This document shows positions 1 through 8,969 of a stretch of DNA of 8,969 nt, in pieces (position 1 is the stretch's first letter; every line of letters begins with the position of its first letter). The stretch covers positions 1 through 8,969 of the forward strand of contig DAOWFY010000142.1 of the NCBI GenBank assembly GCA_030637775.1, read 5' to 3'. The notes beneath the pieces were generated by a model. That model worked only from the letters and a program-made list of their open reading frames with translations, had not been told where the DNA came from and ran no database searches. Origin of the DNA: DAOVGU01 sp030637775 [NCBI: bacterium]. GTDB taxonomy: Bacteria > Ratteibacteria > UBA8468. A program made the position numbers and the translations under genes.

Positions 1-900
1 AAATTCCTCAGGAAAAGGAGTGTAGTTACCTAATTGGATAAACTCTTCTCTCAATGTCCGGTTAAATCTCTCATCAAAGCAGTTATCTTTTGGAGTCTTA
101 ACCCGGGAGAAGTAATGAGCTACCTCTAAGTCTGTGCAGGCCTTCTCAAAGTGTTTAGCAAATTCAGAGCCATTATCAGACTGAATAATCTCTATCTTAC
201 CATCTACCAGATAATAAAGTCTATTTAAGAAATCTTTGCCATTAAAGGAGGAGGCGGCTTTATACATCCTGGCAAAACCAAGTTTAGATACTGTATCAAC
301 TCCGGTAAAGATATATCTTTTTAATCCTGCTTCAAAGATAGAGATTGTATCTACCTGAAAAAAGAAGTTTTCTATCTTCTTATTTTTTAGCTCTGTGATT
401 CTTTTTTTCTTCTGGGACAATCTTCTCTTTCTCCTTAGTTTTTCATTCTTTATTGGGTTGTAGTAGAGGTTATATTTCTTAATGACCCTCTGGATATGCC
501 AGGGGCTCATTTTCTCCTTGTAGATCTTCTCATAGAGGACTGAGAGCTTCTCCTTGCCATAGCGGATATATTTCTTTCTTAAAGCCCGGATTCTATCTTC
601 TTGCTCAAGAGAAAGCTCCATTTTTCTTCTGTTGAGGGGAGCCTTGGATAAACTTTCTAAAGTAGAAAGATCATGTTTATCGTATCTATTGTACCACTTA
701 TAAAAGGTCTTTCGAGAGATACCAAAGTATCTACAGGTCAAAGAGGCATTCTTGCCGCGAGAGAAGTAATAATCCATCCAGGATAGCCTTTTCTTCGCTT
801 CCTTGCTGATATCATTCCTAAGGTCATATTTGGGCGAATTTACCCAGTTAAGATTATAAGATGATGGGTCTCCCCAAGGGAAGATATTGCTCTTGGTCAT
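1..900 (-). CDS. IS481/IS3-like DDE transposase (integrase core), C-terminus beyond window
   Basis: The frame starts at ATG 900-898 and is open for 300 codons to the left edge with no stop, so the gene is cut by the window and not visibly broken. Residues about 41-80 look like a helix-turn-helix region, with the typical 'SRKTFYKWY' stretch. The catalytic rve domain follows: first Asp D184 in 'FQVDTI', second D242 in 'SDNGSEF', and Glu E277 in 'DERFNRTLREEF'. D242 and E277 are separated by 34 residues, close to the DD(35)E spacing of IS3/IS481 enzymes. The protein should bind the IS ends and carry out strand transfer. The start is supported by an AGGGG ribosome-binding site at 908-912, 7 nt upstream. 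The gene lies in the same direction as feoB, so read-through from the feo operon would enter it. Confidence 0.88.
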   Translation of the reverse strand, partial: MTKSNIFPWGDPSSYNLNWVNSPKYDLRNDISKEAKKRLSWMDYYFSRGKNASLTCRYFGISRKTFYKWYNRYDKHDLSTLESLSKAPLNRRKMELSLEQEDRIRALRKKYIRYGKEKLSVLYEKIYKEKMSPWHIQRVIKKYNLYYNPIKNEKLRRKRRLSQKKKRITELKNKKIENFFFQVDTISIFEAGLKRYIFTGVDTVSKLGFARMYKAASSFNGKDFLNRLYYLVDGKIEIIQSDNGSEFAKHFEKACTDLEVAHYFSRVKTPKDNCFDERFNRTLREEFIQLGNYTPFPEEF

Positions 901-1026: not shown

Positions 1027-3567
1027 TTACCTATGTATCTCATCTTGTGCAGTTTTTTGCTGAACAGTTTTTTCTTTACGCTTAATAAAGCCAACCCCGA
1101 CCATAAAAACTATTGCCAGAGTATAGATAGTAATCATCATTTTCAGTCCGCTAAAGCCCAAGAGATTTCCCGCAGTAAAGGCAAGAAAAGCAAATATAAT
1201 TCCCAGAATAATAGGATAGAAAGTAGCAAAAAGCATCCACATTGTGCTTCCGCTCTCTACCCGAATCATCAAAAGGGTGGGGATACAGGGAGGATACATC
1301 GCCATAAATAATATTATTGCTAGAGCGTGGAGGGGAGTCCAGCCACCCTCTTTTTCTCCCAGTCTTTTCTCAAGCCTATCTTCTCTCTCAGTTGGCGGTG
1401 ATTCGTAGAGAACGCCGATTGTACCCACAGCGTTTTCTTTAGCCGCGAAAGCACTTATTAAAGCGATATTCACCTGCCAGTTAAATCCTAATTTTTTTGT
1501 GATTGGCTCCAGAGCAATACCAACTCTACCTAAAAAACTTCCTTTGATTGTCTCCTTCTTTTTCTCTGCACGTAGTTCTCTTCTCTGATTGAATACTTTT
1601 TTGTAAGTTTTATGAACTTTTTTAGCGTCTTTGTCCTTTATCTTCTTTCCCTCCAATTCATACTTTCCCTTTTTCACAATCTTGAAGAATTCAAAGTTTC
1701 TCTGGCGAAACTTTTGCTCAATTACCTTTTTTGTCTTTTCTTCTTCAACACCTCGTGTAGCTGCGCGATAATCATTCCGGTATTTTGTAAAGTTTATCAA
1801 TCCATCTCCAGCCAACAGCTTAGTATAGGGATTATCCTCTCCAATTTTTTTCATAAAACTTTTTTTTATCCGATTGGCCTGACTGTTGTAATGGGCTTTC
1901 CTTTCCTTGCTTAATCCGGGAAAGTTAATTAGTAGATAGACAAGACACATCACTACCATAACAACGGTTATGATTTTTTTAATAAAGATTCCCAGTCGTT
2001 CCAGACAACGACGTAAAACGCCACCGATTGTGGGTAAATGGTAAGGAGGCATCTCCAGGATAAAGGGCGCAGACTCTTTCCTCTTAAGTATTGTGAGACT
2101 CAAGATTTTAGCTACACCAAGAGCGATGATAATGGTAATCGTGCCAATGAAAAACATCATTATTCCTTTAGTGGCGGCAAAAAATAGACCAAGAAGAAGC
2201 ACATATAACGGAATCTTAGCCAGGCAGTTCATCAGGGGAACGACAAGCATCGTGGCTAAACGGGCCTTTTCATCCTTTATTCCCCGGCAAGCCATAACCC
2301 CGGGTATAGCACATCCACCCACATAAACCCCACCCAATACCAAGGGCAAGACGGATTGTCCGTGGAGGCCAAAATATCTGAATACCCTGTCTAAGATAAA
2401 GGACATTCGGGCTAAATAACCGGTATCCTCCATAATAGCTATCAGAGCGAACAGAATTATAAAGATGGGTACATAATTCAATACCGCAATCACTCCGCCG
2501 ATAACCCCTAAAGGCATTGCCCGCAAAAGTGGGTCAAAGACAAATCCTTCCGGAGGAAGGGATAAAACAAGAAATTTTTGCAGTCCCGCAAGAAGGGGCC
2601 AGGTGTAATTGGTAATTTTATAACCCTGGACAATGGAAAGATTGTACATCGCATAAATAGTTCCCAGCAAAACAATCAGCCCTGAGAATCTATTACAAAC
2701 AACCATATCAATCCTATCGGTCAGGGTTTTAGGTTCTGTCCTTATTTGCTTAACACAATGCCCTACAATCTTTTCTGCCTCTCGATAGCGCTGATGAGCG
2801 ATACTCTTTTCTGGTGCTTCTTCATACTGCGAAATAAACTTTTTTCTTTCTTCTTCCACATAACTTAAAATTTCCTCTCCATTTGTAGAATATTTTTTTA
2901 CTGCTCTTTGTGCTTCACTATCGTTTTCTAATAATTTCACTGCTAACCAACGGATAGGATAGCGCTTACTAAAATTTGCATCCTTTGAGAGAAATTGTCC
3001 TAAAGGCTTCAGAATGGACTCTAACTCCTTTCCATAATCAAGCCTCCTGGGACTTTTTTTACTTTCGTATGCCTTATGTATCGTCTGACGGAGCTCTCTT
3101 TTTCCTCTACCTTTGTTGCCAACTGTAGGAACTATCTCTGCTCCTATCTCTTGACTTAATTTTTCTGTATCAATCTGGAAACCACGACTTTTAGCAACAT
3201 CTGCCATATTTAAGTCGATAACCAGGGGGATACCTATCTCAGCTAACTGAAAAACAAGATAGAGGTTCCGCTCAAGATTAGTAGCGTCCACAATATCAAC
3301 TATTACCTCTGGCTTTTCCTGAAGTAAGAAATCTCTGGCGATCCGTTCCTCTAAGCTATAAGAGGTGAGGCTATAGGTTCCGGGGAGATCGGTTAAGAAT
3401 ACTTTATGTTCCTGGATGCGATAAGTGCCGGTCTTTTTTTCTACTGTTATTCCTGGATAGTTGGCTACATGCTGCCTGCCGCCGGTAAGAAGATTAAAAA
3501 TGGTAGATTTACCTGAGTTAGGCTGTCCCGCCACCGCTACCTTTATCTCTTTAAGTTTTCTTCTCAT
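1027..3567 (-). CDS. feoB: Ferrous iron transporter FeoB (G-protein-coupled Fe2+ importer)
   Basis: FeoB imports Fe2+ across the inner membrane. The N-terminal GTPase domain shows G1 GQPNSGKS (14-21), G2 around T41, G3 DLPG (60-63), G4 NMAD (120-123) and a plausible G5 near 149-155. Membrane segments run from about 293 to 829. Core motifs are 'MEDTGYLAR' (379-387), 'GGCAIPG' with C419, 'PLMNC' with C448, 'GFNWQVNIALISAFAAKE' (694-711) and 'YPPCIPT' (758-764). At 846 residues it is longer than the usual 650-800, owing to a hydrophilic lysine-rich insert at about 553-676. The gate motif differs from the common GCNVPA form. The ATG overlaps the feoA stop by 4 bp (ATGA), implying coupled translation. 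The TAA stop lies in the presumed IS end, so the last few residues may be IS-derived. All core transport elements remain, so I expect it to be functional. Confidence 0.96.
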   Translation of the reverse strand: MRRKLKEIKVAVAGQPNSGKSTIFNLLTGGRQHVANYPGITVEKKTGTYRIQEHKVFLTDLPGTYSLTSYSLEERIARDFLLQEKPEVIVDIVDATNLERNLYLVFQLAEIGIPLVIDLNMADVAKSRGFQIDTEKLSQEIGAEIVPTVGNKGRGKRELRQTIHKAYESKKSPRRLDYGKELESILKPLGQFLSKDANFSKRYPIRWLAVKLLENDSEAQRAVKKYSTNGEEILSYVEEERKKFISQYEEAPEKSIAHQRYREAEKIVGHCVKQIRTEPKTLTDRIDMVVCNRFSGLIVLLGTIYAMYNLSIVQGYKITNYTWPLLAGLQKFLVLSLPPEGFVFDPLLRAMPLGVIGGVIAVLNYVPIFIILFALIAIMEDTGYLARMSFILDRVFRYFGLHGQSVLPLVLGGVYVGGCAIPGVMACRGIKDEKARLATMLVVPLMNCLAKIPLYVLLLGLFFAATKGIMMFFIGTITIIIALGVAKILSLTILKRKESAPFILEMPPYHLPTIGGVLRRCLERLGIFIKKIITVVMVVMCLVYLLINFPGLSKERKAHYNSQANRIKKSFMKKIGEDNPYTKLLAGDGLINFTKYRNDYRAATRGVEEEKTKKVIEQKFRQRNFEFFKIVKKGKYELEGKKIKDKDAKKVHKTYKKVFNQRRELRAEKKKETIKGSFLGRVGIALEPITKKLGFNWQVNIALISAFAAKENAVGTIGVLYESPPTEREDRLEKRLGEKEGGWTPLHALAIILFMAMYPPCIPTLLMIRVESGSTMWMLFATFYPIILGIIFAFLAFTAGNLLGFSGLKMMITIYTLAIVFMVGVGFIKRKEKTVQQKTAQDEIHR

Positions 3568-3788
3568 GGTACAACTATTTCTATCTCTTTAGATTCAGAA
3601 TGGCGGATACTTATATGATATCCTTTTAGCAAAATCTCCACCGGATCCACAAGAGGGGCATTACGGATAATATGAATCTTGGCTCCCGGGACAAAGCCCA
3701 TATCAAGTAATCGTTGCCCGGTAACCCCCTCTGCATTTACTTTTGCAATATGACATTTCTGTCCCGGCTTTAATTCATCCAAAGTCAT
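3564..3788 (-). CDS. feoA: FeoA domain protein, second copy, adjacent to feoB
   Basis: This 74-residue cytosolic protein is the normal size of FeoA, a small SH3-like fold thought to help FeoB. It opens with the family pattern 'LDELKPGQKC', then 'RLLDMGFVPGAKIHII' (26-41), then the 'VEILLKGYHISIRHSESKEI' strand region (49-68). It is translationally coupled to feoB by an ATGA overlap. No Shine-Dalgarno sequence precedes its ATG; the 20 bases upstream are A/T-rich and form an inverted repeat, so translation may rely on an unstructured A-tract or on coupling. It is the more canonical of the two FeoA proteins and the more likely direct FeoB partner. Confidence 0.93.
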   Translation of the reverse strand: MTLDELKPGQKCHIAKVNAEGVTGQRLLDMGFVPGAKIHIIRNAPLVDPVEILLKGYHISIRHSESKEIEIVVP

Positions 3789-3792
3789 TTTT

Positions 3793-3873
3793 TTATACTA
3801 TAGTAAAGTATAAGCAGAGTAAACTTTGCCACTACAAATTATTCGGTTGTTGTAGTGGTCGAGCTTGCTCGAC
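3793..3873. repeat. Composite palindromic repeat: four consecutive inverted repeats between the two feoA genes
   Basis: Four inverted repeats lie end to end. They are TTATACT/AGTATAA (3793-3799 with 3807-3813); GCAGAG/CTTTGC with one mismatch (3814-3819 with 3824-3829); CCACTACAA/TTGTAGTGG, perfect, with a 12-nt loop (3829-3837 with 3850-3858); and GTCGAGC/GCTCGAC, perfect, with a 2-nt centre (3858-3864 with 3867-3873). The run resembles a dispersed REP-like or MITE-like palindromic unit. It extends into the upstream feoA and supplies its final 13 codons and TAG stop. It could fold as a multi-stem RNA in the feo transcript. Whether it is repeated in the genome cannot be seen here. Confidence 0.75.
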
Positions 3874-4116
3874 TTTGTTCTCTAAACTAACCATAATCTT
3901 ATAAGCCATTCCCTGTCCCATGGCCAGACGAGTCTCTTTGACCGCAACAAGGAAAGGTCCCGGAGCCCCACGATAGATAACCATAACTTCAGAACCCAGT
4001 CCCAGACCCATACCATATAGATGTGCTTGCAACCCTCTTCCTCCGGACAGAGAGACGATCCTTGCCTTTTGGCCAGGAGGAAGCATTGCCAGCGGCATAA
4101 CCTTCAACCCGTCCAT
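3832..4116 (-). CDS. feoA: FeoA domain protein, first copy, promoter-proximal
   Basis: This 94-residue FeoA-like protein has the 'LPPGQKARIVSLSGGRGLQ' opening (12-30), 'LYGMGLGLGSEVMVIYRG' (33-50), a glycine/proline turn 'APGPF' (51-55), and a final strand ending near residue 78. It is the divergent FeoA type often seen as the first of two feoA genes before feoB. A GAGG ribosome-binding site (4126-4123) sits 6 nt before the ATG, supporting this start. It is the first gene after the feo promoter. Residues 82-94 are encoded by the palindromic repeat that follows and lie beyond the FeoA fold, so the C-terminal tail is probably an acquired extension. Its exact role next to the second FeoA is unknown. 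Confidence 0.9.
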   Translation of the reverse strand: MDGLKVMPLAMLPPGQKARIVSLSGGRGLQAHLYGMGLGLGSEVMVIYRGAPGPFLVAVKETRLAMGQGMAYKIMVSLENKVEQARPLQQPNNL

Positions 4117-4134
4117 AGTATACCTCTATAATCG

Positions 4135-4157
4135 TAATTGAGATACAATCTCAATTA
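4135..4157. promoter_or_regulatory. Candidate Fur operator of the feo operon
   Basis: This is a perfect palindrome with 10-bp arms, TAATTGAGAT (4135-4144) and ATCTCAATTA (4148-4157), separated by ACA. The core is TTGAGAT-N3-ATCTCAA. It overlaps the -10 box of the feo promoter, so a bound protein would block RNA polymerase. The adjacent fur gene makes Fur the obvious binder. The sequence is not the E. coli GATAATGATAATCATTATC box but has the same dyad character. Confidence 0.8.
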
Positions 4158-4181
4158 TACCATAAAAAAATTTTCTGTCAA
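4154..4181 (-). promoter_or_regulatory. Sigma-70-type promoter of the feoA-feoA-feoB operon
   Basis: On the minus strand a perfect -35 TTGACA (4181-4176) is followed after 16 bp by a perfect -10 TATAAT (4159-4154). Transcription would start near 4147, about 30 nt before the feoA ATG. A second TTGACA at 4191-4186 lies 10 bp further upstream. The -10 overlaps the palindromic candidate Fur site. Confidence 0.8.
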
Positions 4182-4193
4182 CAACTGTCAAAT

Positions 4194-4631
4194 TCATCTC
4201 AACTTTTTTTGGCATTTCTGGCAATATCCTCTAATTCCTAAGCGATGTTCTACTGACTTAAAGTTATATTTCTTGCAAACTGCTTCCTGAAACCTTTCTA
4301 TTTTTTCTTCTCTAAACTCAATCACCTTGCCACATTTTAGACAAACCATATGGTCATGGTGTTTGTGTCCAAAAATATGCTCGTATTTGACTCTCCCCTG
4401 ACAGCGTAATGTCTCTTGAATAAGGTTGCAATCAAGCAATAAGGGGAGGGTGCGATAGATAGTCGCGCGGGAGAGACGATTATCTTTTTTGTGCAATTTT
4501 CCCCAGAGTTGGTCGATATCAAAATGTTTATGCAGAGAAAATACCGTCTTTAGAATAAGTTGTCTTTCCGGAGTAAACTTTAATCCTCTCTCCTTAAGAT
4601 AATTCCTGAATTCATCTTCATACATATTCAT
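4194..4631 (-). CDS. fur: Fur-family metal-responsive transcriptional repressor
   Basis: This 145-residue protein has normal Fur length. The N-terminal winged helix includes 'FTPERQLIL' (19-27) and the recognition-helix region 'SRATIYRTLPLLLD' (54-67). The regulatory site shows 'HKHFDID' (34-40) and 'HHDH' (91-94). The structural zinc site has two CxxC pairs, C97/C100 and C137/C140. These features fit Fur/PerR/Zur; the position between tonB and feoAAB favours iron-sensing Fur, but Zur or PerR cannot be excluded from sequence. No strong Shine-Dalgarno precedes the ATG; a second in-frame ATG lies two codons in. Its promoter region begins directly after the tonB stop, so it may also be reached by read-through. 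A related palindrome in that region suggests autoregulation. Confidence 0.93.
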   Translation of the reverse strand: MNMYEDEFRNYLKERGLKFTPERQLILKTVFSLHKHFDIDQLWGKLHKKDNRLSRATIYRTLPLLLDCNLIQETLRCQGRVKYEHIFGHKHHDHMVCLKCGKVIEFREEKIERFQEAVCKKYNFKSVEHRLGIRGYCQKCQKKLR

Positions 4632-4693: not shown

Positions 4694-5374
4694 CTATTTC
4701 AAAGTAAAAACAAGAGAAACCTCCATCTGGACAGAGGAGAGATTTATCTCCTTTGGGATAGGAGAAAAGGGATTGGCTCTTTTTATGGTGGCAATTGCTT
4801 CCTTATCCAGTATTTGGAAACCTGAAGAATCTAAGAGCTTGATTTTTTGAGCATTTCCATTGGAAAGAACTATAAATGTAAGATGAGAGATGCCTTCAAG
4901 ACCTTGTCTTTTTGCCTGGATAGGATATCTGCGACAAGACTCAATCCTCTGTTTAACCATATCCTGATAACGGAGCATTGCTTCCTTGGCTGGATTTAAA
5001 ACTTCGATCTCGAGTGGTTCCGGTTTTACCAATGCTATCTTTCCAATTTCTCTTTCATCCTTTGGCTCGGGTAAAATTGGATTTTCAAACTTAGGCTTAA
5101 CTCGAGAGATAATCTTCTCTAAAGGTAGAGGTTCCGGCATAACTTCCCTTACTCGAGGTTCTGATATTTTTTCTTCCTTCAATTTCTTCTCTTTGCTAAT
5201 TTTCTCTATTTTTGGAAGGAGGGGAGGGGTCTCTATTTTTATCCGCACAACTACCTCTTCAGGACTTTCCACTTTTGATTTAAATTTAAAAAAGTCCTCT
5301 GGTATTCCGAATAATAATAGATGTCCAGTTAAAGAGATAAGAAAAGCAATTTTTATTGCCGGATCATTTGGCAT
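4694..5374 (-). CDS. tonB: TonB energy-transducing protein
   Basis: This 226-residue protein spans the periplasm to couple the inner-membrane proton-motive force to outer-membrane receptors. An N-terminal membrane helix (about 7-24) carries the S14-x3-H18 pattern; the His corresponds to the functional His of E. coli TonB. A Pro/Glu/Lys-rich periplasmic spacer (about 36-130) follows, then the TonB C-terminal domain (about 133-226). That domain has 'RRYPIQAKRQGLEG' (148-161), 'VLSNGNAQKIKLLDSSGFQILD' region (169-190) and a final beta strand. Its start overlaps the end of exbD by 11 bp, so it is the last gene of the exbB-exbD-tonB unit. The partner receptor is not in the window. Confidence 0.93.
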   Translation of the reverse strand: MPNDPAIKIAFLISLTGHLLLFGIPEDFFKFKSKVESPEEVVVRIKIETPPLLPKIEKISKEKKLKEEKISEPRVREVMPEPLPLEKIISRVKPKFENPILPEPKDEREIGKIALVKPEPLEIEVLNPAKEAMLRYQDMVKQRIESCRRYPIQAKRQGLEGISHLTFIVLSNGNAQKIKLLDSSGFQILDKEAIATIKRANPFSPIPKEINLSSVQMEVSLVFTLK

Positions 5375-5771
5375 CTTTTCTGGTAGAGATTACTAGGTCT
5401 TTTGCATTTGCCTGCTTGGCAATATCCATCACTTTAACGGCCAATCCCAAATCTATTTTTTCATCGGCCTTAATGATTACTGCCTTTCCTTTGGACTCTT
5501 TTATTCTTGCACTTAATTGGTCAAGAAGATTATTTAGGTTTACTAATTTGTCATTCAGATATAAGGTATTATCTTTAGTGATAGAGATGATGATATTTTC
5601 TTCTGGATGCAACTTTGTTGTGGAAGCATAAGGCAGGCTAATCTTTATTCCTGGCTGGCTGATAAAGTGAGAGGAGAGCATAAAAAAGATAAGTAACAGA
5701 AAAACGACATCTATTAAAGGGGCAATATTTAAATGGGTATAGACCTTTTTCCTTTTCTCAAATTCCACCAT
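5364..5771 (-). CDS. exbD: Biopolymer transport protein ExbD/TolR family
   Basis: ExbD forms the proton-driven motor with ExbB. This 135-residue protein has a short basic N-terminal tail, one membrane helix (about 17-37) with the essential Asp at D21 in 'APLIDVVFLLLIFFML', and a periplasmic domain of typical size to residue 135. The Asp matches the proton-carrying residue of E. coli ExbD. A strong AGGGAAGG ribosome-binding site inside the last codons of exbB, 8 nt before the ATG, fixes the start. The gene begins 5 bp after exbB and ends overlapping tonB. TolR is the alternative name, but the TonB-type protein downstream favours ExbD. Confidence 0.94.
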   Translation of the reverse strand: MVEFEKRKKVYTHLNIAPLIDVVFLLLIFFMLSSHFISQPGIKISLPYASTTKLHPEENIIISITKDNTLYLNDKLVNLNNLLDQLSARIKESKGKAVIIKADEKIDLGLAVKVMDIAKQANAKDLVISTRKDAK

Positions 5772-5776
5772 GCGAC

Positions 5777-6400
5777 TTACCTTCCCTGCCGTTTATCATT
5801 TGCAATTTGCAATTCGATGAGTTCTGAGGCTGCATCCTTCATTTCAACAGCATAATCATTCACCCTTCCTTCAAAATAATGATAAGCCACAAGAGTAGGG
5901 ATGGCTACAGATAGTCCTGCAGCGGTAGTAAGAAGTGCTTCCCATATTCCTCCAGCTAAAACATTGGCATCCACTCGACCACCCAGCTCCTGAATCTTCA
6001 TAAAGGCACGAATCATCCCGACAACTGTACCTAAAAGACCTAAAAGTGGGGTGATATTTCCAATGATAGCCAACCCCCGAAGATGCTTTTCTAAATCTCT
6101 TACCTCTTTTGAGCCTGCCCTAGATAGTATCTTTTCCTGCTCAGAAAGGGTTCTTTTATGATTTTGAATACCATAAGAAAATATTCTCCCAACAGGACTT
6201 GTCGTTTCTTGACATAACCTCAATGCTTCATCTCTTTTGTCCCTGATTAAAAGTTCCTTTATCCGGGAAAGGAAGCCCGGAATATTGATTCTTACGCGAT
6301 GCAGATGATAAAACCGCTCCAAGATGATGGTAATTGAAATTACCGAACACAAAAGAATCGGCCACATCAAAAATCCACCCTTTAAGAAAAAGGAAAACAT
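5777..6400 (-). CDS. exbB: MotA/TolQ/ExbB proton channel protein
   Basis: ExbB is the inner-membrane channel of the TonB motor. This 207-residue protein shows three membrane segments: about 10-29, 108-133 ('GNITPLLGLLGTVVGMIRAF') and 153-176 ('WEALLTTAAGLSVAIPTLVA'), with a long cytoplasmic stretch between the first two. E154 lies at the start of the third helix, consistent with the conserved Glu of the family. The gene starts 6 bp after the chelatase subunit gene with no clear ribosome-binding site, which points to translational coupling, and it precedes exbD by 5 bp. TolQ would look similar; the company of ExbD and TonB supports ExbB. Confidence 0.94.
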   Translation of the reverse strand: MFSFFLKGGFLMWPILLCSVISITIILERFYHLHRVRINIPGFLSRIKELLIRDKRDEALRLCQETTSPVGRIFSYGIQNHKRTLSEQEKILSRAGSKEVRDLEKHLRGLAIIGNITPLLGLLGTVVGMIRAFMKIQELGGRVDANVLAGGIWEALLTTAAGLSVAIPTLVAYHYFEGRVNDYAVEMKDAASELIELQIANDKRQGR

Positions 6401-6406
6401 TTTACT

Positions 6407-8389
6407 CTATTTTATAGATTCTTTTACCAAATTAGTGAGAATGTCCGACCTTATGCTTTCCAGGGAGTAATACTTCCCATCCAACTCCTGAGAAAGTTCT
6501 TCCAATTTTCCTAACCTGATGAATCCTATTTCTGTATCGATGACGATTGATTTTATTCCTGAATCTTTTATCATTCCGGCTATTTGTTTTGCTTCATTAA
6601 AAGGATGGGAGTTTCCTCCAATAGCGACATTTGCCTTTCCATCGGAGATAATGACAAGTAAAGGCTTAATATTTTTATCCTTATTTAACTCATTGCGCAG
6701 AACTTCATATCCAAGCAATAATCCCTTTGACAACGGAGTCTTACCTCCGGTAGGAAGTTCCTCCAATTGCTTCTTTGCCAATTCTACGCTGGATGTAGGG
6801 TTAAGGAGGACTTCGGCTCTTTCTCCTTTAAAGGCTACTAAACCTATTCTATCCCTTTTTTGATAAGCATCTATAAGTAAAGAAAGGATTGCTCCCTTTG
6901 CTTCAACCATTCTTCTATTTGCTCCCATCGAGCCAGATGAATCAACCACAAAGATAATGGTATTGCCAATCTTTTTTTCTCTTACCTTCTGCCGGATATC
7001 CTGTGGTTCTATAGCTATAGCTACTTTGCTATTGTTTTTCCGGTGTATCTGGTATGGAGCAGAGGCTCGTAGTGTTGCATCAAAGGCAATATCATTAGTT
7101 TTACCTTTAGGCAACATACTTCCTACATAACGGCCGGATTTGGTATCGCTTTTGACTTTACTTCTTTTGCCATCTCCTTTCTTTGCTTGGGAATCTTTAG
7201 GAAGAGATATCTTTTTTATTGGATAAGATTCCCCAGTTTCGAATGTCACTTCTGATTCACTATTAGGCTGGGAACTCTGTTCTTGATTCTGTTCTTTATC
7301 ATCTGTCTTCTGGTTTTTTTCTTCCGATTTCTGGTTACTATTCTCTGGTTTCTCTTTCTTATGTTTCTGAATAGACTTCTCCAACTTCTCTTTATCTACC
7401 TTTGGTTCCTGAAAGGGTTTACGCCGCATTCGGTGGGAAAGCACAAGTTCGGCTGCTTCTCTTACATCATTTTCCGTAACTTGAATTCTTTGATGATAAG
7501 CACTAATGGTCTGTGCTACCTTTAACATAAAAATATCTGCCCTGTGGCCATCAACCGCCATCTCTATGGCAATGTCGGCAATGAGTTTAAGAATCTCTTT
7601 ACTATAGGTAACCCTGGGGAATAGTTCTTTAGCCCGAATTATCAACTGGCAGAGGTTCCTTTCCTCTTTCTTCCACCTCTTTTCAAAACCATGGGGATCC
7701 TTCTCATATTGAATACATCGGGAAATTACCTCAACTCGTGCTTGAGGCTCACCAATGCCTTTTACTTCTATGCATAAGCCAAATCTGTCTAATAACTGTG
7801 GCCTGAGTTCCCCTTCTTCCGGATTCATTGTGCCAATGAGAATAAAGCTTGCTGGATGAGAATAGGATATACCCTCTCTTTCCACATAATTTACCCCCAT
7901 AGCCGCAGAGTCCAAAAGAACATCTACTAAATGGTCATCAAGAAGATTTACTTCATCAACATAAAGGATACCTCGATTAGCCAGGGCTAAGATGCCGGGT
8001 TCAAAGATCTTCTCGCCTTTTTTTATGGCATGTTCGATATTCAATGTGCCGACTACTCTATCCTCTGTTGCCCCTAAGGGTAAATCTACCACCTTCATCT
8101 TTCTCTTAATTCTAGGCAACCTTTCACCTTTAGACTCACGTTCAATACAATCTTTACACATTTCATTCTTATGGTGTGGACTGCAATTAAAGGGACAATT
8201 CTTCACAACTTCAATCTCCGGCAAAAGATTTGCCAGGGCTCTGGCTGCTGTGGATTTAGCCGTCCCTTTCTGACCGCGAATCAAGACCCCGCCAAGATTA
8301 GGATTAATGGCATTTAAGATAAGGGCTTTTTTCATCTGTTCCTGTTCTACAATAGCCGTAAATGGGAAGATTACTCTTCGACAACTCAT
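6407..8389 (-). CDS. Fused ChlI-ChlD chelatase ATPase subunit (magnesium/cobalt chelatase family)
   Basis: This 660-residue protein combines the AAA+ motor and the vWA subunit of class I metal chelatases, which drive ATP-dependent metal insertion by a CobN/ChlH-type large subunit. Walker A is GQKGTAKST (39-47), Walker B '[10 protein letters not shown]' (141-150), and sensor-1/arginine-finger region '[18 protein letters not shown]' (186-203). Four cysteines (C65, C69, C78, C81) form a CxxxC-x8-CxxC set common in this subfamily. A charged Lys/Glu/Gln linker spans about 328-430. The C-terminal vWA domain has MIDAS residues DSSGS (483-487), T551 and D583. It overlaps cobN by 4 bp (ATGA), so it is almost certainly its partner. 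It replaces the separate CobS and CobT of aerobic B12 makers. Confidence 0.93.
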
Positions 8390-8969
8390 TTTTCTCTCTC
8401 TATTAACTTCTGAATTTGTTGGACATTATTATTCCAATTTTCTACATCGGATGAGGTTAGTATATCTGTAGAACCACCCTGGAAATCTCCTTTCACATCT
8501 CCCATCCTTTCTTCCAGCCAGCTTTCAATTTCAAGATAGATATCCTTTAGTGCCTGAAGAACTTTAGGATCGGCATCCCAGAGCTCTCTTTGATGTGCCT
8601 CTAATAGTCTGCGACCAATTTCTTCTAATGCCCAGGGATTATTTTCTTCAAAGAACTTTCTCATTTCTTCATCAAGAACAAAGGTCTTTGCAATTTCATC
8701 AAATATCCAATCATCTACCTCCCCGGTCGTTGCCTGCCAGCCATAGACCCTACCAACTCTTTTGGAGATATCGCCGGCCCCTTTATACCCATGGCGTTTC
8801 ATCCCCTCAATCCATTTTGGATTAAGTACTTTTGTCCTTACAACTCTTCGAATTTCGTCAGCAAGTTCAACCACTTTTAAATGGGAAGGATTTCGCGTAT
8901 CTCCGTAATAATTTTCTATTTCTTTACCAGAGATATGTCTGGCAGCGGTTGCCATTCCTCCCTGGACAG
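8386..8969 (-). CDS. cobN: CobN/ChlH-type chelatase large subunit, C-terminal 193 residues
   Basis: Only the 3' end is present; the frame continues past 8969 (Val-Gln-Gly-Gly before the Met at 8955), so that Met is internal. The visible part matches the C-terminal region of CobN/BchH: '[22 protein letters not shown]', split here as '[11 protein letters not shown]' and 'YYGDTRNP', then '[16 protein letters not shown]', '[18 protein letters not shown]', '[20 protein letters not shown]' and '[13 protein letters not shown]'. It would bind the tetrapyrrole and insert, or possibly remove, a metal with the downstream ChlI-ChlD ATPase. Cobalt chelation for B12 is the default reading; ExbBD/TonB co-transcription and nearby fur-feo leave open a CobN-like haem-processing role such as that of HmuS. 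About 30 C-terminal residues after 'EERMGD' are lineage-specific. Confidence 0.9.

What the first reader, a model, noticed from the sequence alone, without database searches (positions are those of the whole stretch)
4694..8969. CobN + ChlI-ChlD chelatase fused into one operon with ExbB-ExbD-TonB, beside fur and feoAAB
Five genes are joined by overlaps or 5-6 bp gaps, so a chelatase and an outer-membrane energising motor are made together. For B12 synthesis alone, TonB machinery would not be expected in the same transcript. Established parallel: Bacteroidetes hmu loci pair a CobN-like protein (HmuS) with a TonB-dependent haem receptor and have been linked to iron release from haem. Inference: this operon may import a tetrapyrrole (haem, cobalamin or a corrinoid) and exchange its metal, with freed Fe2+ under the same Fur control as feo. 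A cobalt-chelation role with TonB-driven cobalt or corrinoid uptake is the main alternative.
Basis: partly seen in the sequence, partly recalled or inferred. Interest (0 to 1): 0.7.

Follow-up and report, generated by a model that had tools for sequence, protein, structure and literature searches.

The report
Nickel-scavenging operon with a chelatase
A bacterium that appears unable to make its own haem- or vitamin B12-type rings carries a nickel-controlled import operon that includes an enzyme of a family known for moving metals in and out of such rings, which suggests that it takes nickel out of ring molecules made by other microbes.

Summary
In detail: CobN C-terminus, fused ChlI-ChlD, ExbB, ExbD and TonB form one tight operon, followed by fur and feoAAB. 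The iron/haem reading is not supported. In a same-genus genome the run is contiguous and starts with nikR, then a TonB-dependent receptor, a siderophore/B12-type ABC transporter, a two-Gate membrane protein, cobN, chlID, exbB, exbD. A NikR-box-like repeat (GTAGCAC-N13-GTGCTAC) precedes the receptor in both genomes, and the same repeat precedes a DUF4198 (NikK-like) gene in a third. Similar boxes, nikR or nikM/Q-like genes adjoin part of the related operons in other phyla. HemB, CbiC and CbiM were not found in the window's genome or the close relatives tested, so a home-made ring is unlikely. This CobN belongs to a clade with two cysteine motifs; one replaces the metal-binding His-1209 of the haem de-chelatase HmuS. 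Best explanation: a nickel-repressed, TonB-driven nickel-scavenging system in which CobN-ChlID strips nickel from an imported tetrapyrrole. Nickel control is well supported (about 0.9); de-chelation and substrate are inferred (about 0.5). [quoted passage not shown]

The parts
8386..8967 (-). CobN-like class I chelatase large subunit, C-terminal 193 aa (open at the contig end); the upstream operon continues on contigs C59 and C75 of the same genome
   Evidence: PF02514 207 bits; NF004646 338.6 bits for this fragment; window collinear with same-genus contig L007 at 88-92% DNA identity, 1503 bp missing between C59 and the window
6407..8389 (-). Fused ChlI-ChlD AAA+/VWA ATPase motor subunit (660 aa)
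   Evidence: TIGR02442 842.8 bits over cut-off 779.45; overlaps cobN by 4 bp
5777..6400 (-). ExbB proton channel (PF01618)
   Evidence: gap of 6 bp to ChlID
5364..5771 (-). ExbD (PF02472)
   Evidence: gap of 5 bp to exbB
4694..5374 (-). TonB (PF03544 C-terminal domain)
   Evidence: overlaps exbD by 11 bp
4194..4631 (-). Fur-family regulator; neighbour, probably a separate unit
   Evidence: PF01475; 62-bp gap after tonB with a promoter-like site
1027..4116 (-). feoA-feoA-feoB ferrous iron uptake genes; neighbour, probably a separate Fur-type unit
   Evidence: PF04023 twice and PF02421/PF07670/PF07664; perfect promoter-like site 4181-4154 and an inverted repeat upstream

Best explanation
This is the distal part of a nickel-repressed nickel-acquisition operon. 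Shown from sequence: gene order nikR - TonB-dependent receptor - periplasmic binding protein - FecCD/BtuC-type permease - ATPase - two-Gate membrane protein - cobN - chlID - exbB - exbD - tonB (contiguous from nikR to exbD in the same-genus genome; over three contigs in the window's genome); a NikR-box-like operator before the receptor gene; HemB, CbiC and CbiM not found in the genome. Inferred: when nickel is scarce NikR leaves the operator, ExbBD-TonB drives a nickel-carrying tetrapyrrole (most plausibly coenzyme F430, its breakdown products or other Ni-porphinoids released by methanogens/ANME) through the receptor, the ABC transporter brings it into the cytoplasm, and the ATP-driven CobN-ChlID machine works as a de-chelatase that releases Ni2+ for CO dehydrogenase/acetyl-CoA synthase. 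The cysteine triad that stands where HmuS has His-1209 would be the nickel-receiving site. The two-Gate protein (which shares the Gate domain with FeoB) may move the freed metal or expel the empty ring.
For: Operon: nikR to exbD contiguous in same-genus genome G001 (L007). In the window's genome C75 and C59 abut on the G001 map (8898/8895) and 1503 bp are missing before the window, at 88-94% DNA identity. NikR: 187.3 bits against a cut-off of 105, with the QHH, QHIH and DNC segments that align to solved NikR (their role as Ni ligands is recalled). Operator: the repeat stands before the receptor in G000 (1 mismatch to the searched pattern) and G001 (0), and before a DUF4198 gene beside nikR in G003 (0) (the link of DUF4198 to NikK is recalled). 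Wider: in 87 sources (1.29 Mb) 5 perfect GTnnnAC-N13/14-GTnnnAC repeats against a mean of 0.6 in 10 shuffles, all 5 intergenic; they precede cobN itself (L017, L018), the receptor (L027), FecCD (L088) and DUF4198 (L108). L017/L018 match the reversed Desulfotalea NikR signal of PMC545781 Table 4. nikR is in 3 of 80 loci. In Ca. Kuenenia hertensis nikR and nikM/Q/O-like genes stand directly upstream of the whole cluster, and in Methanocellales L021 nikR and CbiM/PDGLE/CbiQ genes flank it. No ring synthesis found: HemB in 0 of 5 genomes, CbiC in 0 of G000, G001, G033. CbiM in 0 of 5. Nickel demand: CODH/ACS. Receptor scores best against a haem-receptor model, permease and ATPase against B12 models, binding protein against TIGR04281 and then BtuF, all below curated cut-offs. 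CobN clade. Published: CobN1 and NikR1 high only under nickel limitation in M. marburgensis (PMC12350162, passages).
Against: No biochemistry is known to me for this clade; direction (removal or insertion) and substrate are inferred. The G001 CobN passes curated cut-offs of cobaltochelatase models (NF004646 1813.1 over 1468; TIGR02257 841.0 over 822.05) and even of BchH (848.2 over 829). HmuS, the de-chelatase of the superfamily that I could read about, needs NADH and not ATP (PMC12583661 passages), whereas this operon keeps the ATPase motor used for insertion. NikR-controlled TonB uptake of nickel in Helicobacter needs no chelatase (recalled). Of 12 loci with a receptor, 7 (L015, L020, L022, L024, L071, L074, L077) show no intergenic box at 1 mismatch or fewer (L020 and L077 are cut inside the receptor gene, so its upstream is unseen), and the L016 site has 2. 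18 of 47 genomes searched show no NikR. No CbiM was found in G003, so a full NikMQO system next to its box is not shown. Some relatives lie near B12 elements: cobalamin riboswitches just after the operons of L027 and L077, cbi genes beside L074 and a CbiA-like gene in L059; 10 of 19 genomes tested have CbiC. NikM/CbiM-type transporters can carry cobalt (recalled). The window's genome is 83.5% complete, so absences rest also on G001 (93%) and relatives.
Confidence: 0.55

Rival explanations
1. Nickel uptake through a metallophore: the chelatase inserts Ni into (or removes it from) an imported or recycled tetrapyrrole that is used as a shuttle; the ABC-2 pair seen in many relatives exports the ring.
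For: ATP-driven class I chelatases with ChlID are known for insertion; an ABC-2 permease accompanies 34 of 80 related loci, with its ATPase in 30.
Against: HemB was found in none of 5 genomes, so no ring seems to be made, and the parts seen of the G000/G001/G033 operons hold no ABC-2 pair.
Confidence: 0.15
2. Cobalt or corrinoid system: the operon imports corrinoids and CobN-ChlID inserts or swaps cobalt; the NikR-like protein responds to Co as well.
For: CobN and ChlID pass curated cobaltochelatase cut-offs; permease and ATPase score best against BtuC and corrinoid ATPase models, below cut-offs; CODH/ACS needs a corrinoid protein, CdhD is present; cobalamin riboswitches or cbi genes lie next to 3 relatives (L027, L077; L074); the NikM/CbiM family is shared by Ni and Co (recalled).
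Against: No cobalamin riboswitch in the window or before the operons of the 18 loci scanned, several of which are cut; the shared box precedes a NikK-like gene; nikR adjacency in four lineages (L012, L013, L016, L021); this cobN clade differs from the canonical rows at the metal site.
Confidence: 0.15
3. Haem-iron release: HmuS-like de-chelation of imported haem under Fur, feeding feoB.
For: fur-feoAAB adjacent; receptor scores best against a haem receptor model, below cut-off; TonB-dependent receptor plus CobN-type protein as in hmu (PMC12583661 passages); L016 also has feo genes downstream.
Against: nikR and a NikR-box at the head of the run; lacks the HmuS motif LDHxxEFxGG; separate branch from HmuS-like rows; HmuS is a more distant solved relative (373.7 bits versus 572.6 for CobN 7c6o).
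Confidence: 0.06
4. Ordinary late cobalt insertion in B12 synthesis.
For: Curated models call it cobaltochelatase (NF004646, TIGR02257, TIGR02442).
Against: No CbiC and no HemB found, and the one TP-methylase hit of the window's genome is an rRNA methyltransferase; the CobN of a cbi cluster (L009) lies on another branch.
Confidence: 0.02

Closest known systems
NikR-controlled TonB-dependent nickel uptake of Helicobacter (FrpB4/FecA3 or NikH with TonB-ExbBD; CeuE-FecDE), recalled; nickel receptors listed in PMC11247825 passages
   Same: NikR, TonB-dependent receptor, siderophore-type ABC parts, ExbBD-TonB
   Different: no CobN/ChlID chelatase and no two-Gate protein there (recalled)
Bacteroidetes Hmu haem system with de-chelatase HmuS (PMC12583661, passages)
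   Same: TonB-dependent receptor plus CobN-superfamily protein in one operon; metal scavenging logic
   Different: HmuS de-chelation did not need ATP; HmuS has Met79/His254, LSLDHxxEFMGG, a Met-rich insert and predicted membrane anchors; here a Cys triad, an ATPase motor and NikR
CobNST cobaltochelatase / ChlHID magnesium chelatase
   Same: large subunit family and motor subunits; GTHG/GKHG motif; curated cobaltochelatase cut-offs passed
   Different: metal-site segment D(S/G)DD in the canonical rows versus CCC here; no corrin pathway found; nickel control
[quoted passage not shown]
   Same: CobN homologue tied to nickel shortage together with NikR

Membership tests
NikR nickel regulon | NikR regulator over curated cut-off with conserved metal-site segments | tested here: met
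   NF003381 187.3 bits, cut-off 105; alignment to NikR structures 2bj1, 2wvd and 1q5v; TIGR02793 116.7 is below its cut-off 175.45
NikR nickel regulon | 27-28-bp inverted repeat operator with 7-bp half-sites and N13/14 | tested here: met
   compared with PMC545781 text and Table 4; the half-site letters differ from the published consensus
NikR nickel regulon | nickel-dependent repression in vivo | not testable with these tools
   needs expression data
HmuS haem de-chelatase | LSLDHxxEFMGG motif with His-1209 | tested here: not met
   most Cys-clade rows read GCCCYFGTHGG or close to it there; HmuS-like paralogues L010, L056, L057, L069 have DLDHxxE(F/Y)
HmuS haem de-chelatase | haem de-chelation activity without ATP motor | not testable with these tools
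   the operon carries ChlID, against expectation
CobN cobaltochelatase of B12 synthesis | curated model over cut-off | tested here: met
   G001 CobN: NF004646 1813.1 over 1468, TIGR02257 841.0 over 822.05; it also passes BchH TIGR02025, 848.2 over 829
CobN cobaltochelatase of B12 synthesis | corrin pathway in the genome | tested here: not met
   CbiC not found in G000, G001, G033; HemB not found in 5 of 5; drafts, the window's 83.5% complete
CobN cobaltochelatase of B12 synthesis | falls among canonical CobN | tested here: not met
   separate branch, support 100 (quick tree, 4 canonical rows only, one of them in a cbi cluster and three labelled by motif)
class I chelatase superfamily | PF02514 large subunit with GxHG histidine and ChlI/ChlD-type motor | tested here: met
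   GxHG histidine in 85 of 85 rows; the window's own fragment does not reach that site, the C59 half does
Magnesium chelatase (ChlH/BchH) | photopigment synthesis context | tested here: not met
   no HemB found, so no protoporphyrin; NF004646 scores far higher than BchH
TonB-dependent nickel uptake system | transport of nickel by the receptor | not testable with these tools
   receptor family cannot tell the ligand

The most novel reading that the evidence does not exclude
The Cys-motif CobN clade is a third functional kind of class I chelatase, a nickel de-chelatase. Each branch carries a different residue at the metal-receiving position (His in HmuS-like, Asp in canonical CobN rows, Cys here). 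Bacteria without tetrapyrrole synthesis use it to mine nickel from coenzyme F430 and related rings shed by methanogens and ANME, and methanogens/ANME use their own copies with ABC transporters to recycle it.
Probability: 0.35. Interest if true: 0.9.

Novelty: new variant of a known kind. Interest (0 to 1): 0.74.

Why it matters
Anaerobes and methanogens carry CobN homologues annotated as cobaltochelatase whose role is unsettled; the HmuS paper states that their use in Archaea is unclear (PMC12583661, passage). Tying one clade to nickel control gives a testable function, questions an automatic annotation, and points to nickel passing between community members as a tetrapyrrole in methane-rich sediments.

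Tried and rejected
Haem/iron under Fur: rejected as main reading (nikR at the head, no HmuS motif). B12 synthesis: rejected (CbiC and HemB not found, no riboswitch before the operon). Chance operator: the looser class of repeats (1 mismatch or fewer) is not clearly above chance overall (16 seen; mean 9.9, range 6-16 in 10 shuffles); only the perfect class and the position (9 of 16 intergenic) speak for it; the 7 of 16 that lie inside reading frames were not counted as operators. Genome-wide, the pattern with up to 2 mismatches is about as common as its reversed control (18 versus 19 in G000, 29 versus 26 in G001, 22 versus 14 in G003), so only the 0-1 mismatch sites were used; one further 1-mismatch site, G001:C126, was not followed. 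Hydrogenase: the PF00374 hit in G000 scores better as NuoD and is not used as nickel demand. A structure prediction was not run: the protein exceeds 1200 aa and no coordinates are returned. Papers: searches, 67 of the open-licence library listed no paper that, by its listing or the passages seen, describes a NikR-TonB-CobN operon or Ni de-chelation by CobN; subscription papers were not searched.
Full report
What is in the window. The window is contig C145 of a 1.40-Mb, 83.5% complete MAG. CobN runs off the contig. Its N-terminal half lies at the end of contig C59, behind the end of an ABC ATPase gene and a two-Gate membrane protein; contig C75 holds nikR, a TonB-dependent receptor, a periplasmic binding protein, a FecCD permease and the start of the ATPase. 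A same-genus genome (G001; named record 'bacterium isolate CSMAG_1143', L012) carries nikR to exbD on one contig. Mapped on it, C75 and C59 abut and 1503 bp are missing between C59 and the window, at 88-94% identity. Another genome of the same class, recorded as Candidatus Omnitrophota B48_G9, has ATPase-Gate-cobN-chlID-exbB-exbD-tonB. CobN was found in 5 of 61 genomes searched: the window's own, one of the same genus, one of the same class and two merely of the same domain.

Who controls it. The first gene of the run is a NikR; an epimerase-like gene precedes it. Between nikR and the receptor gene stands an inverted repeat with 7-bp half-sites and a 13-bp spacer, in G000 and G001; in G003, a same-family genome in which no CobN was found, the same repeat stands before a DUF4198 gene next to nikR ('NikK-like' is recalled, and CbiM was not found in G003). 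In G033 nikR sits in a hypC-hypD-hypE-like run. The box architecture is that described for NikR in delta-proteobacteria (PMC545781, passages and Table 4). Over 87 sources the perfect class is enriched (5 versus a mean of 0.6), the 1-mismatch class is not clearly so. Intergenic sites lie before cobN in L017 and L018 (the called reading frame starts inside the box, a Met lies 10 codons further), before the receptor in L012 and L027, before FecCD in L088, before a ChlID gene in L063, and in Ca. Kuenenia hertensis L013 after a nikO-like gene and 202 bp before the next gene, upstream of the receptor; Fibrobacter has a further one, not a perfect repeat, before nikM (L150). In L013, nikR and nikM/Q/O-like genes stand immediately upstream of the receptor-ABC-cobN-chlID-exbB-exbD-tonB run, with two genes of unknown family and a short frame in between. 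In Methanocellales L021 nikR follows chlID and CbiM-PDGLE-CbiQ genes lie on the other side. Against: many loci show no box, and NikR was found in 29 of 47 genomes.

What the chelatase could act on. HemB was found in 0 of 5 genomes (11 of 14 controls positive), CbiC in 0 of G000, G001, G033, CbiM in 0 of 5 (3 of 14 controls positive); the one TP-methylase hit of G000 is an rRNA methyltransferase. G001 has two partial TP-methylase hits, not examined further. So a ring made by the cell itself is unlikely. Receptor, permease and ATPase score best against haem or B12 transporter models, the binding protein against TIGR04281 and next BtuF, all below curated cut-offs. Nickel need is shown by CODH and acetyl-CoA synthase genes. 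In the wider set CbiC is present in 10 of 19 genomes with this CobN, so lack of a corrin pathway is not a rule for all carriers.

The CobN clade. A scan of genome contigs, with patterns taken from two members of this group, gave 207 relatives, of which the best 80 were kept; the set is therefore biased to close relatives and is no census. Among these 80 loci a siderophore-type ABC component is near in 53, ChlID in 50, an ABC-2 permease in 34, Gate in 18, a TonB receptor in 12, CbiQ in 10, nikR in 3 and a cbi/cob gene in 2 (single-sequence searches, so lower bounds, and many contigs are cut). In 85 full-length CobN rows (L008, a duplicate of L014, dropped; split or short frames left out) 74 carry the loop motif GCAGxxCDGxxC(K/R), 75 the CC motif, 73 both. 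By motif the rows are Cys type (76, plus L087 inside with one loop cysteine lost), canonical (4) and HmuS-like (4), each set clustered on a quick tree; two long Cys-type rows (second copies in L024 and L064) have unsure places. The alignment is ungapped between the EYD-like and GG anchors, so the third Cys stands where HmuS has His-1209 and the second where it has Asp-1208 (HmuS numbering from PMC12583661 passages). In a minority of Cys-type rows one of the three is another residue. That the cysteines take nickel is inference; an iron-sulfur cluster is another possibility. The one member tested, G001 CobN, still passes cobaltochelatase cut-offs.

Mechanism and limits. Shown: operon, control elements, pathways not found, clade. 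Inferred: import of a Ni-tetrapyrrole, removal of Ni by an ATP-driven de-chelatase, role of the Gate protein. Published support is indirect: in M. marburgensis CobN1 and NikR1 are high only under nickel limitation (PMC12350162, passages), and HmuS shows that the fold can de-chelate (PMC12583661, passages). F430 as the substrate is a guess from ecology: as I read the record names, relatives come from cold-seep, Guaymas and methanogenic samples.

Noticed in passing
L107 1180-1292 (+), L007 13437-13550 (-), L016 1684-1800 (+): A conserved structured leader between the NikR box and the receptor start codon: two strong stems around an invariant CCGCTGGTACTCAG, ending in GGTGGCAA close to the start; folds at z -5.0, -5.8, -3.9. 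Model R1 was built from the first two, which match by construction; the independent hit is the Nitrospirota L016 (E 3.8e-06). 3 of 38 genomes have it; no Rfam match at gathering score, none convincing for L107 at a lax threshold. Possibly a new riboswitch.
   Followed up: partly
L056, L057, L069 (HmuS-like), L047, L054, L070 (canonical), L024, L064 (second Cys type): Several loci carry two CobN paralogues, of different type in six of these eight; in L047 and L070 ChlI/ChlD and an ABC-2 pair stand between them.
   Followed up: no
L028 2924-5186: Nitrogenase component 1-like and NifH-like genes upstream of the Cys-type cobN in a Methanophagales (ANME-1) MAG.
   Followed up: no
34 of 80 loci: A ~248-aa ABC-2 permease recurs near this CobN, with an ABC-2-type ATPase in 30 of the loci; possible exporter of the emptied ring.
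   Followed up: no
L019, L022, L054, L080, L081, L082, L085, L086, L089, L091: CbiQ-type ECF permease genes near the Cys-type cobN, half of them in Methanosarcina (one member, L089, checked by Pfam).
   Followed up: no
L107 1-621, L007 14201-15241, L016 595-1503: An NAD-dependent epimerase/dehydratase gene precedes nikR in the two same-genus genomes and a similar one lies between nikR and the receptor in Nitrospirota (Pfam for L107 only).
   Followed up: no
window 4117-4193: Perfect consensus promoter with extended TG and the inverted repeat TAATTGAGATTGTATCTCAATTA before feoA, a likely Fur-type operator.
   Followed up: partly
window 1-900 (-): Integrase-core (rve) transposase with HTH, open at the contig end.
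   Followed up: no
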